Position numbers and translations under genes: made by a program. A stretch of DNA of 64,000 bases, taken from the NCBI GenBank assembly GCA_026705605.1, contig JAPPAK010000003.1:124728-188727 (forward strand). Direction: 5' to 3'. How positions within the stretch are numbered: position 1 is the stretch's first letter; the number at the start of each line of letters is the position of its first letter. The stretch is from Chloroflexota bacterium. Lineage in GTDB: Bacteria > Chloroflexota > Dehalococcoidia > Tepidiformales > Tepidiformaceae. Shown in pieces: positions 45,419 through 49,095 of the stretch. Below the pieces are notes generated by a model that was not told where the DNA came from, made no database searches, and worked only from the letters and a program-made list of their open reading frames with translations.

Positions 45419-46255
45419 TCAGTCCATGCGGCTACCGCCGTCGACGTTCAGCGCCTGGCCCGTCATGTAGGACGAGTCGTCGGAGGCGAGGAAGGCGACG
45501 ACGGCGGCCTGCTCCTCGACGGTGGCCTGACGGCCCATGAGGAGCGCGCGGCGGATGGCGGCCTTGGAGGTGCCCGGCTCGGCGCCGGCAACCTCGTCGT
45601 AGCGGCCGAAGGTGCCGTCCATCATGTCGGTGTCGGTGGAGCCGGGGCAGACGATGTTGACGCGGATGTTGTCCTTGGCGAGCTCGAGGGCGAGCTGCTG
45701 GGTGAGGCCGTGCATCGCCCACTTGGTGGCGCAGTAGGCGCCGTAGTTGGGGATACCGATGCGCCCGGCGGTGGAGGAGATGTTGATGATGCTTCCGCCG
45801 CCGCCCTTCACCATCTCGCGGCCGACGGCGCGGATGGTGTGGTAGAGGCCATGGAGGTTGACGTCAACAGTCTCGTACCAGTTCTCGTCGGTCATCTCGA
45901 GGATGGGGGCGGCGCCGGCCTCACTGGGGAGGGCGGCGTTGTTGACGAGGATGTGGATGCCGCCCAGCTCGGCGACGGCCGCGTCGACGGTGCGCTGGAG
46001 GTCGTCCTTGTCGGTCACGTCGCAGTCGATAGCGAGGGCGCGGCGGCCCATGCCGCGCACCTCCTCGGCGACGCTCTCGATGCCGTTCCAGCCCATCTCC
46101 TGCTCATGCGGGGGGAAGGTGGAGGGGTCACGCTGGCGCGCGGTCACAACGATGTCGGCGCCCTCCTCAGCGAGGCGCAGCACGATGGCGCGCCCGATGC
46201 CGCGGTAGCGTCCGGCGCCGGTAACGAGGGCGACCCGGCCGGCGAGCCTAGTCAT
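45419..46255 (-). CDS. Short-chain dehydrogenase/reductase
   Basis: 278-residue classical SDR. TGAGRYRGIGRA (12-23) binds the cofactor. LVNNAALPSE is the NNAG-equivalent, the catalytic Ser is in NISSTAGRIG and Tyr-Lys in YCATK. The C-terminal PGSTDTDMM and MTGQALNVDGG complete the family pattern. Compared with the typical TGxxxGIG, the glycine motif has two extra residues (GAGRYRGIG). ATG 46255 overlaps the end of the SnoaL-like gene by 8 bases. Likely oxidises or reduces a hydroxy/keto group of the pathway substrate. Confidence 0.93.
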   Translation of the reverse strand: MTRLAGRVALVTGAGRYRGIGRAIVLRLAEEGADIVVTARQRDPSTFPPHEQEMGWNGIESVAEEVRGMGRRALAIDCDVTDKDDLQRTVDAAVAELGGIHILVNNAALPSEAGAAPILEMTDENWYETVDVNLHGLYHTIRAVGREMVKGGGGSIINISSTAGRIGIPNYGAYCATKWAMHGLTQQLALELAKDNIRVNIVCPGSTDTDMMDGTFGRYDEVAGAEPGTSKAAIRRALLMGRQATVEEQAAVVAFLASDDSSYMTGQALNVDGGSRMD

Positions 46256-46739
46256 CGAAGGGTCCGCCGGTGATGGCGCCGAGGTCCTCCCACTTCATGG
46301 CGCGGCGCCGGTTCCAGTGCTCGACCCAGCTATCGACGTAGCCCTGCCCGCCGTGGTGGTAGTCGACCTCGAGGGTGACCTCACCCTCGTCGTTGAACTC
46401 GAGGCGGGACACGCCCTCGAAGGAGCGCCACTTGCCGTAGTTCTCGTCGTTCTCGTCCATCACCTGGGAATAGGCCATCCAGAGGATGCAGATGCCGCGG
46501 TGATTCTCAGCGACATAGACCTCCTCGACGGGGACGCGAAGGGTGATGCCAACCTGGCGGCTTGCCCAGAACTGGCGAATCTCTTCCTTGCCGTTCAGGG
46601 CCTCGGCGTGGCTGACGATGTCGCGCATGACGGCGTCATCGGAGAACCACTGGTCGGGGCCGTAGGGGTCGCCGCTGCTCCAGCCGCCCTCCTCGAAGAG
46701 CTTGCGTCCGGTCTCGATGTCATTGGGTCCGACGGGCAT
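46248..46739 (-). CDS. SnoaL/NTF2-like protein, copy 1
   Basis: 163 residues. The cone-shaped NTF2-like fold is suggested by an N-terminal helix (NDIETGRKLFEEGG), WFSDDAVMRDIVSHAEALNGKEEIRQFWAS (helix-strand unit, split motif) and long antiparallel strands (VPVEEVYVAENHRG, GEVTLEVDYHH). Such proteins serve as small-molecule isomerases, hydratases or hydrolases. It is nearly identical in length and layout to copy 2 at 47389-47880. Promoter: TATGAT 46769-46774 and an AAGGAGG ribosome site. First gene of the SnoaL-SDR-ADC-LLM operon. Confidence 0.85.
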   Translation of the reverse strand: MPVGPNDIETGRKLFEEGGWSSGDPYGPDQWFSDDAVMRDIVSHAEALNGKEEIRQFWASRQVGITLRVPVEEVYVAENHRGICILWMAYSQVMDENDENYGKWRSFEGVSRLEFNDEGEVTLEVDYHHGGQGYVDSWVEHWNRRRAMKWEDLGAITGGPFDD

Positions 46740-46774: not shown

Positions 46775-46804
46775 CCGAGGGCGGAGGAGGGTGCGGGGTT
46801 GAGC

Positions 46805-47095
46805 CTAATCGCCTGGGATGGGCTGGAGCCGATCACCTGCAGGGAGGAGGCTCAGGAGCCTCTCCCGGTAGTCCACTTCGCCGAGGTCAGCTTCGGCGAA
46901 CTCCGTCGCGCACTGTTCCAACGCTCCAAGCATTTCCCTGATAGCCTGTGAAGCGCGCTCCTGGTTGCTCCAGTCAACACTTGCAAGGAAGTCTTCCAGC
47001 GATCCCGGAGTAAGCGGTCCACGGAGCGTCTGGCGCACAGCGTCGACAACAGCCTCAAGAGCAAGCGTGTCAATCGGGACGGCAGCACTCTTCAT
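46805..47095 (-). CDS. Small acidic protein of unknown function (cassette between the SnoaL copies)
   Basis: 96 residues, acidic and mostly helical: VDAVRQTLRGPLTPGSLEDFLASVDWSNQERA and MLGALEQCATEFAEADLGEVDYRERLLSLLP (listed as two blocks). No family recognised. The composition suits an antitoxin or immunity-type partner, but that is speculation. ATG 47095 has GGAGGG 12-13 bases upstream, rather far. The same bases CAT/ATG (47093-47096) also form the first start of the plus-strand gene, so the two reading frames diverge from one point. Local G+C (57-62% in lines counted) is lower than that of the flanking genes. Confidence 0.5.
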   Translation of the reverse strand: MKSAAVPIDTLALEAVVDAVRQTLRGPLTPGSLEDFLASVDWSNQERASQAIREMLGALEQCATEFAEADLGEVDYRERLLSLLPAGDRLQPIPGD

Positions 47096-47372
47096 GGAAG
47101 TCACAACCCTCCAGGACCTTGAGCGCATCTGCACGCTCGAAGGCGTGCAGGAAAAGCGCGCTGCAGGCGTTCTGACTGACATCATCGCCTACTCGGCTCC
47201 AGCCCGAAACCCTGCGTACGCCGGGGGTGAATCGCTCATACTCAAAATCCTCACTCCGCGTGGGCAGCACATCGCAACCTGGCACGAGATCAGAATGCCG
47301 GACGGTTCGATCCCCCATAGCCACCCGAAGGACTACACGAGGCGGGATTGCTCCCGTGTGCGGGCGGGCTAA
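47094..47372 (+). CDS. Small basic protein with an HPKDYTRRDC motif, unknown function
   Basis: 92 residues from ATG 47094, or 75 from GTG 47145, which would avoid the overlap with the divergent gene. The C-terminal half (LILKILTPRGQHIATWHE, then a PDGSIPHSHPKDYTRRDCSRV block) looks like a folded beta domain with a His/Cys/Arg-rich motif that could be an active or binding site. No family recognised. No Shine-Dalgarno is clear at ATG 47094. It points toward the end of SnoaL copy 2 with 16 bases between stops. With its divergent partner it forms a compact low-GC cassette. Confidence 0.5.
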   Translation: MEVTTLQDLERICTLEGVQEKRAAGVLTDIIAYSAPARNPAYAGGESLILKILTPRGQHIATWHEIRMPDGSIPHSHPKDYTRRDCSRVRAG

Positions 47373-47388
47373 ATCCTGCTCACAACTC

Positions 47389-47880
47389 TCAGGCGCCGGT
47401 GATGGCGCCGAGCTCATCCCACTTCATAGCGCGACGGGCGTTCCAGTGCTCGACCCAGCTATCGCACATCCCCTGGACGCCGTGGTGGTAGTCGACCTCG
47501 AGGGTGACCTTGCCTTCGTCGTTGAACTCGAGGCGGGACATGCCCTCGAAGCAGCGCCACTTGCCGAAGTTCTCATCGTTCTCGTCGACGACCTGGGAGT
47601 AGGCCATCCACATGACAGCGACGCCGCGGTGGTTCTCGGCGACGTAGATCTCCTCGGCGGGGACGCGGACGGCCATACCGTACTTGCGGTTGCGCCAGAA
47701 GCTGCCCCAGAAGGAGCGAATCTCGTCCTTGCCGCGCATGGCGCCGTCGTAGTTGACGATGTCACGCATGACGGCGTCGTCGGCGAACCACTGGTCGGGG
47801 CCGTAGAGGTCGCCGCTCCCCCACCCCTCATCCCCAAAGAGCTTGCGGGCGGTCTCGATATCGTTGGGTCCTACGGGCAT
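47389..47880 (-). CDS. SnoaL/NTF2-like protein, copy 2
   Basis: 163 residues, the same length as copy 1 and matching at about three of four positions by eye (MPVGPNDIET-RKLF start, WFADDAVMRDIVN, ENDENFGKWR, WVEHWNARRAMKW ending). The main difference is a four-residue shift around FWGSFWRNRKYGMAVRVP. ATG 47880 has GGAGG and a TATCAT (47902-47907). It stands alone, separated from copy 1 by the small divergent cassette. Function as for copy 1 is unknown. Confidence 0.85.
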   Translation of the reverse strand: MPVGPNDIETARKLFGDEGWGSGDLYGPDQWFADDAVMRDIVNYDGAMRGKDEIRSFWGSFWRNRKYGMAVRVPAEEIYVAENHRGVAVMWMAYSQVVDENDENFGKWRCFEGMSRLEFNDEGKVTLEVDYHHGVQGMCDSWVEHWNARRAMKWDELGAITGA

Positions 47881-47967: not shown

Positions 47968-49095
47968 CTACTGCTGGTTCTCGGGATCGCCCGCGGTCTC
48001 AATCAACCCCTTGATGTGGTTGCTGAAGTGGCTCCCGTCGTCGATGAGTTCCAGGGCCTCTAGCTGCCTCTCAAGGCAGATAACCTCGGCGGCCGTTCGA
48101 TAAGAGTCTTCCCCCTGAGTGTAGAGATTGCTGTGACAGGCATTGTGCACCATGGCGCCCGCCAACCAGATCACTTGGTCTCGCCGGCTGTAACCCGGAG
48201 CAAAGGCCGTTCCTTCCTCCACGAGGTAAGTCTTCGAAGACAGGTTCATCCCGGAGCCCGAAGAAACCAACCGAATGGTTGCGATCCCTTGCTCGACCCT
48301 GACGAGGGCCTCCGGCGCCCGTTCCGACAGGAGTTGAAGCGCTGCCTCGACCTGCTCCACAAACTCATTCGACCCCTCGACTCGGATCCCGCCGGCGGTA
48401 GCCGTCGCAGCCGGGGCGCCGGTGGAATCGCCGTCACTCTCAGAGACATCCTGGATCAACCCCCGGACGTGGTCGCCGAAGAGATCGCGCTTGTCTATCA
48501 GCTCCAGGATGGCGAGTTGTTCCTCGAGGCAGGAGATCGTCGCAGTGGCGCTGGAGTAGTCCCATCCAGCGCGGTAGAGGTCGATGAGACACGCGTCGTA
48601 GACGAGCTCCGCGGCCAGCCAGATAACCTGGTCGGAAGGAGCGAAGCCAGGGACGAACGCCTGGTTCTCGGCGACCCGCACGACACCATCGATCAAGTCC
48701 TGCGCCGTGCCTGTTGGGAAGGGCACCGAGAAGATCGCCTCAATCCTTTCCTCGACCCAGAGGAGTGTCCCGGGAGCCCACTCCTGGAGGAGAGAGAGCG
48801 CGGCTCCAACCTGGGCGACGAAGTCGTCGGGGCCCACGATCCTGATAGGCGTTGAGATGGTTGCTGCGGCAACGGAGGCAGCCGAGGTGGCCGTGGCAGT
48901 CGTGGTCGGGGTGGCCGCGACCGATGGGGTCGGAGAGATTGCGGCGGTCGCGGTCGGGGAGGTTGCGGCAGGTTGGGTCTCCGCCGGAGACGCCGGTGGG
49001 GCGGGGTCGCCACCGCCGCAGGCTACGAGGGACGCCATGAGAAGGGTTACGAACCCGACGCCAACGGCAAGGCGAGTCATGCGGCGAGGCCTCAT
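47968..49095 (-). CDS. Lipoprotein with a duplicated zincin-like domain (probably catalytically dead)
   Basis: 375 residues. Signal peptide with lipobox LVAC (Cys26), a Thr/Pro/Ala-rich linker (30-83), then two homologous domains (84-222 and 237-370). Each has the series DF/EFV-QV-AAL-LL, DQVIWLA, a DAC/NAC motif and CLE-QL-(A/E)-LELID, with paired cysteines (169/189; 320/340). VHNACH (316-321) plus E337 in the second domain looks like an HExxH...E zinc site with Glu changed to Asn. The first domain reads VYDACL and has lost both His. Anchored on the outer face of the membrane. ATG 49095 is 6 bases after TAGCAT. Confidence 0.8.
   Translation of the reverse strand: MRPRRMTRLAVGVGFVTLLMASLVACGGGDPAPPASPAETQPAATSPTATAAISPTPSVAATPTTTATATSAASVAAATISTPIRIVGPDDFVAQVGAALSLLQEWAPGTLLWVEERIEAIFSVPFPTGTAQDLIDGVVRVAENQAFVPGFAPSDQVIWLAAELVYDACLIDLYRAGWDYSSATATISCLEEQLAILELIDKRDLFGDHVRGLIQDVSESDGDSTGAPAATATAGGIRVEGSNEFVEQVEAALQLLSERAPEALVRVEQGIATIRLVSSGSGMNLSSKTYLVEEGTAFAPGYSRRDQVIWLAGAMVHNACHSNLYTQGEDSYRTAAEVICLERQLEALELIDDGSHFSNHIKGLIETAGDPENQQ

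What the first reader, a model, noticed from the sequence alone, without database searches (positions are those of the whole stretch)
46805..47372. Low-GC cassette of two divergent small genes between duplicated SnoaL genes
Two small frames diverge from the same CAT/ATG at 47093-47096 (minus: 96 acidic residues; plus: 92 basic residues with HPKDYTRRDC). Neither belongs to a family I know, and local G+C (57-62% in lines counted) is below that of neighbours. Acidic-basic pairing in a small acquired unit is reminiscent of toxin-antitoxin or effector-immunity pairs. The HPKDY...DC motif could be a catalytic site. This is the best candidate here for an undescribed two-gene unit.
Basis: inference. 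Interest (0 to 1): 0.6.

Follow-up and report, generated by a model that had tools for sequence, protein, structure and literature searches.

The report
Head-to-head toxin-antidote-like gene pair
Two tiny genes that start from the same four bases and run in opposite directions form a real, mobile, co-evolving pair found widely in the bacterial phylum Chloroflexota; they have no described family and look like a poison-and-antidote unit with an unusual gene layout, though toxicity has not been tested.

Summary
A (minus, 46805-47095, 96 aa, pI 4.3) and B (plus, 47094-47372, 92 aa, pI 7.9) share start bases CATG (47093-47096). Neither matches Pfam, NCBIfam, PADLOC, PHROGs or a solved fold. Relatives occur across Chloroflexota. 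In 49 of 49 scorable loci A and B lie head-to-head, and about 33 have the same 4-nt start overlap. Both frames are under purifying selection and their distances co-vary (Mantel r 0.68). A's Shine-Dalgarno is embedded antisense in B's first codons. Six same-genus genomes have the empty site, so a ~0.58-kb piece holding only A and B was inserted between old tandem SnoaL genes. Loss is one-sided: 13 loci keep A with B broken or absent, none keeps intact B without A. This points to B as the harmful member and A as antidote. In 20 loci a third gene (DUF6941) gives the order C> <A B>; the window lacks it. Toxicity and neutralisation are inferred, not shown; B's target is unknown. Best reading: an undescribed toxin-antitoxin-like module with nested ribosome-binding sites.

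The parts
46805..47095 (-). Gene A: 96-aa acidic, predicted four-helix protein (antidote candidate); TAG stop at 46805-46807
   Evidence: ORF; relatives in head-to-head position; dN/dS below 1; AlphaFold pLDDT 88
47094..47372 (+). Gene B: 92-aa protein, predicted two helices plus antiparallel sheet (toxin candidate); TAA stop at 47370-47372
   Evidence: ORF; relatives across the phylum; dN/dS below 1; AlphaFold pLDDT 94
47093..47096 (.). CATG: overlapping start codons of A and B
   Evidence: Sequence; the same 4-nt overlap in 34 loci including the window
47107..47112 (-). Shine-Dalgarno-like GGAGGG of gene A, lying antisense inside codons 5-7 of B
   Evidence: at least 5 nt of the consensus in 18 of 31 loci, against 0-2 at nearly all control positions
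46803..47390 (.). Approximate extent of the inserted segment (absent from six same-genus genomes); boundaries uncertain by a few bases
   Evidence: Empty-site alignment
46248..46739 (-). Flanking SnoaL-like gene 1 (context, not part of the unit)
   Evidence: Pfam SnoaL_2; tandem arrangement kept in the genus
47389..47880 (-). Flanking SnoaL-like gene 2 (context, not part of the unit)
   Evidence: 75% identical to gene 1; 81% identity at DNA level

Best explanation
A and B form a compact mobile two-protein module of toxin-antitoxin type: B is the growth-inhibiting member and A its acidic, faster-evolving protein antidote. Shown here: the pair is real, co-inherited, head-to-head, co-evolving, acquired at this site, and loses B while keeping A but not the reverse. 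Inferred: B inhibits a cytosolic target and A binds and blocks it. Also inferred: because the start codons overlap and A's (in some loci also B's) ribosome-binding site lies inside the partner's coding sequence, the two mRNAs must be complementary over their 5' ends, so each transcript can mask the other's start region and keep B low while A is made. In the window A also points the same way as the SnoaL genes, so read-through could supply extra A while running antisense to B (inference).
For: Head-to-head co-occurrence in 49 of 49 loci; 21 of 22 B-bearing genomes in the phylum sample also bear A; conserved 4-nt overlap and nested SD; purifying selection on both; co-varying distances, r 0.675; patchy distribution and empty site; one-sided decay, 13 versus 0, e.g. 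B truncated at 28 codons beside intact A in L009 and absent beside A in L007; A acidic in 94% and B basic in most relatives; one relative lies beside a FitA/PIN toxin-antitoxin pair (L011).
Against: No toxicity or binding data. No known toxin family or fold. Head-to-head layout is not that of classical type II systems. No copy found on plasmids or in viral contigs, although those searches used single sequences. A third gene (DUF6941) in 20 loci suggests the full system may be more than a pair. Some broken B copies may be assembly errors.
Confidence: 0.5

Rival explanations
1. A three-part defence or stress module (DUF6941 protein C, A, B): B is an effector held by A and C senses a trigger; the window copy is a reduced A-B form.
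For: C> <A B> order in 20 distinct loci; C matches Pfam DUF6941; a solo A lies downstream of a gene with a sub-threshold TIR match in L007.
Against: More than half of the loci, including the window, have no C within about 1.5 kb; no PADLOC match; no trigger known.
Confidence: 0.2
2. A non-toxic regulated pair: A is a regulator or chaperone of B, which has an ordinary metabolic or binding role.
For: Divergent neighbours are often regulator and target (general knowledge); no toxin fold found.
Against: No intergenic space for an operator; no DNA-binding family in A; one-sided loss of B and patchy distribution fit a costly B better.
Confidence: 0.2
3. An effector-immunity pair: B is a toxin domain related to polymorphic toxin tips and A its immunity protein, used between cells.
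For: Profile comparison links B's hairpin to the C-terminal tip of an RHS protein in G664 (hhalign probability 93%, 39 columns; E 1.2e-4).
Against: B is free-standing, with no delivery domain fused; the match covers only a beta-hairpin, other unrelated proteins show a similar hairpin, and no A-like gene was detected near the RHS gene in L062.
Confidence: 0.06
4. One or both frames are chance open frames in G+C-rich DNA.
For: High G+C gives many spurious open frames.
Against: The coding bodies overlap by only 4 nt; both proteins are conserved across a phylum with dN/dS below 1.
Confidence: 0.01

Closest known systems
Type II toxin-antitoxin modules (RelBE, VapBC and the like)
   Same: Two small adjacent co-inherited proteins, acidic antidote candidate and mostly basic partner, mobile, patchy, antidote retained when partner decays
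   Different: Head-to-head instead of co-directional; no known toxin or antitoxin family; no DNA-binding domain recognised; sometimes a third gene
Type I toxin-antitoxin with divergently overlapping antisense RNA (symE/symR type; named in the reference list of PMC5812544)
   Same: Opposite transcripts would overlap at the 5' end of the toxin candidate gene (inferred)
   Different: Here the opposite strand encodes a selected protein, not only an RNA
Polymorphic toxin / immunity pairs (RHS tips)
   Same: Weak similarity of B's hairpin to one RHS C-terminal tip
   Different: No delivery module on B; no A-like gene detected near that RHS gene
DUF6941 (PF22091)
   Same: Neighbour gene in 20 related loci
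   Different: Function unknown; no paper found; absent beside the pair in the window

Membership tests
Type II toxin-antitoxin | Two adjacent, co-inherited small protein genes | tested here: met
Type II toxin-antitoxin | Co-directional operon | tested here: not met
   All 49 scorable loci are head-to-head
Type II toxin-antitoxin | Toxin of a recognised family or fold | tested here: not met
Type II toxin-antitoxin | DNA-binding antitoxin acting on a shared operator | tested here: inconclusive
   No DNA-binding family in A and no intergenic space in most loci, but a fold-level or binding test was not possible
Type II toxin-antitoxin | Toxin lost or broken while antitoxin is kept, not the reverse | tested here: met
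   13 versus 0 loci
Type II toxin-antitoxin | Toxin inhibits growth and antitoxin protein neutralises it by binding | not testable with these tools
   Needs expression and binding assays
Type I toxin-antitoxin | Antitoxin is a non-coding antisense RNA | tested here: not met
   A encodes a conserved protein with dN/dS below 1; an additional antisense effect is not excluded
Type I toxin-antitoxin | Small hydrophobic membrane toxin | tested here: not met
   B is predicted as a soluble alpha/beta domain
Polymorphic toxin effector-immunity | Toxin domain at the end of a secreted multidomain protein | tested here: not met
   B is free-standing in all loci except one short match in an RHS tip
Divergent regulator-target pair | Intergenic promoter/operator region and a DNA-binding regulator | tested here: not met
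   Starts overlap; no DNA-binding family found

The most novel reading that the evidence does not exclude
A new class of toxin-antitoxin in which both partners are proteins encoded head-to-head with overlapping start codons and nested ribosome-binding sites, so that the two mRNAs act as mutual antisense controls on top of protein neutralisation; B would be a new toxin fold.
Probability: 0.25. Interest if true: 0.8.

Novelty: new variant of a known kind. Interest (0 to 1): 0.6.

Why it matters
It adds two undescribed protein families and a gene layout that surveys based on co-directed neighbours (such as PMC2701414) would miss. The 4-nt start overlap is kept although the proteins average only about 20-28% identity, which suggests that regulation depends on the overlap itself and makes mutual antisense control of a protein pair directly testable. 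It also gives a first genomic context for DUF6941.

Tried and rejected
Pfam, NCBIfam, PADLOC and PHROGs with the window proteins, and the first three with distant members, gave nothing significant. PDB sequence searches gave nothing. From the helix-helix-sheet order I suspected a RelE/barnase-like fold, but Foldseek did not return one among the hits listed; SnoaL/NTF2-like hits are weak (TM at most 0.46) and their agreement with the SnoaL neighbours looks coincidental. Plasmid hits H1 and H2 were on the wrong strand of unrelated genes. The RHS-tip link could not be strengthened. Consensus promoters and terminators: none found in the cassette, which is uninformative for this phylum. Literature searches found no description of such a pair.

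Full report
What is there. Gene A (minus strand, 46805-47095) and gene B (plus strand, 47094-47372) start from the same four bases, CATG at 47093-47096. G+C of the cassette is 61.3%, three standard deviations below the window mean. A is acidic (pI 4.3); B is weakly basic here (pI 7.9) but basic in most relatives (median 9.1).

It is a real two-gene unit. Within the same family, G011 and G006 hold both genes side by side and divergent, and a named Chloroflexi MAG (L011) has the same pair. A profile of B found relatives in 34 of 393 genomes of the class and 22 of 400 of the phylum; a profile of A found 26 of 400. Of the 22 B genomes, 21 have A; the exception is a partial match in an RHS protein. 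In all 49 scorable loci outside the window A lies on the opposite strand, head-to-head with B. In 34 loci including the window the start codons overlap as CATG; one of these, L003, relies on internal ATGs. Close relatives L015 and L017 keep the same register with a non-ATG codon for B, and L002, L003 and L011 may start B slightly upstream. Some loci are near-duplicates from sister genomes.

Both frames are genes. In the three closest pairs of relatives dN/dS (NG86) is 0.07-0.22 for B and 0.08-0.36 for A. Distances of A and B among 39 loci correlate (Mantel r 0.675; best of 2000 permutations 0.16), and B is the more conserved partner in 87% of comparisons.

Translation signals are nested. The A signal explains the proline pair near the N terminus of many B proteins (CCTCC read antisense is GGAGG). 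If these signals are used, the mRNAs carry leaders and must be complementary at their 5' ends. That is an inference; start sites were not mapped.

The unit was inserted here. Six of the eight other genomes of the genus have the same two SnoaL genes with about 70 bp between them instead of about 650, and the alignment leaves essentially only A and B as the insert. No integrase, transposase or obvious target duplication was seen. Four same-genus genomes carry distant B relatives at other places.

Direction of dependence. Among loci away from contig ends, 40 have A and B complete, 13 have A complete with B broken or missing, and none has B complete without A (examples). Thirteen against zero is p = 0.0002 by a two-sided sign test (own arithmetic). 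Some broken B copies may be assembly errors in draft genomes, and the A profile was trained on A genes found next to B, so the figure is indicative.

Structure. AlphaFold gives B as two helices and a five-strand antiparallel sheet (pLDDT 94, pTM 0.81; antiparallel is inferred from strand order) and A as four helices (pLDDT 88). Neither has a significant match among solved structures, and B has none among viral models.

A third gene. In 20 distinct related loci a ~150-aa protein lies beyond A, tail-to-tail with it and on B's strand: C> <A B>; the eight examples scanned match Pfam DUF6941, one of them below its cut-off. The window has no C beside the pair; its genome has two DUF6941 genes elsewhere without A or B nearby. 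The role of C is unknown and no paper names the family.

Interpretation. The genomic behaviour is that of a poison-antidote pair, B being the poison. It does not satisfy the usual definition of a type II toxin-antitoxin (co-directional operon, known toxin fold) nor of type I (RNA antitoxin), so I do not file it as a member of either; I give about 0.5 that it works like one. The main rivals are a three-part DUF6941-A-B defence or stress module (0.2) and a non-toxic regulated pair (0.2). A published survey of type II systems collected only co-directed neighbours (PMC2701414), which may be why pairs like this are not on record; type I modules with divergently overlapping antisense RNAs are the nearest precedent for the layout (reference list of PMC5812544).

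Limits. Only Chloroflexota genomes could be searched by profile; plasmid and viral searches used single sequences. Nothing here shows toxicity, binding or transcription.

Noticed in passing
L002, L017, L020, L022, L027-L031, L033, L034, L036, L040, L042, L046, L049, L059, L065, L069, L107: A DUF6941-type gene lies tail-to-tail with A and on B's strand, giving the order C> <A B>; not present beside the pair in the window.
   Followed up: partly
L062 (also L071, L100), C-terminal end of a 2252-aa RHS protein: The last ~40 residues resemble B's beta-hairpin (hhalign probability 93%; RHS_repeat by Pfam). Possible link to polymorphic toxin tips, weak.
   Followed up: partly
L007 30-1505 and 1513-1830: A without B directly downstream of a gene with a sub-threshold TIR_2 match (E 6.6e-4, below cut-off).
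   Followed up: partly
L020 1134-1484 (-), 1480-1818 (+), 2046-2303 (+): One B gene is flanked by two different A genes, one head-to-head and one downstream.
   Followed up: no
window 47968-49095 (-): A 375-aa protein with a lipoprotein-like N terminus and two similar halves, no Pfam match, in a stretch as low in G+C as the cassette; possibly also acquired.
   Followed up: no
window 46248-46739 and 47389-47880; genus-wide: Tandem SnoaL-like paralogues; most genomes of the genus carry five copies in all.
   Followed up: partly
L011 3407-4692: A FitA/PIN toxin-antitoxin pair and an NTP_transf_6 nucleotidyltransferase lie directly beside the A-B pair.
   Followed up: no
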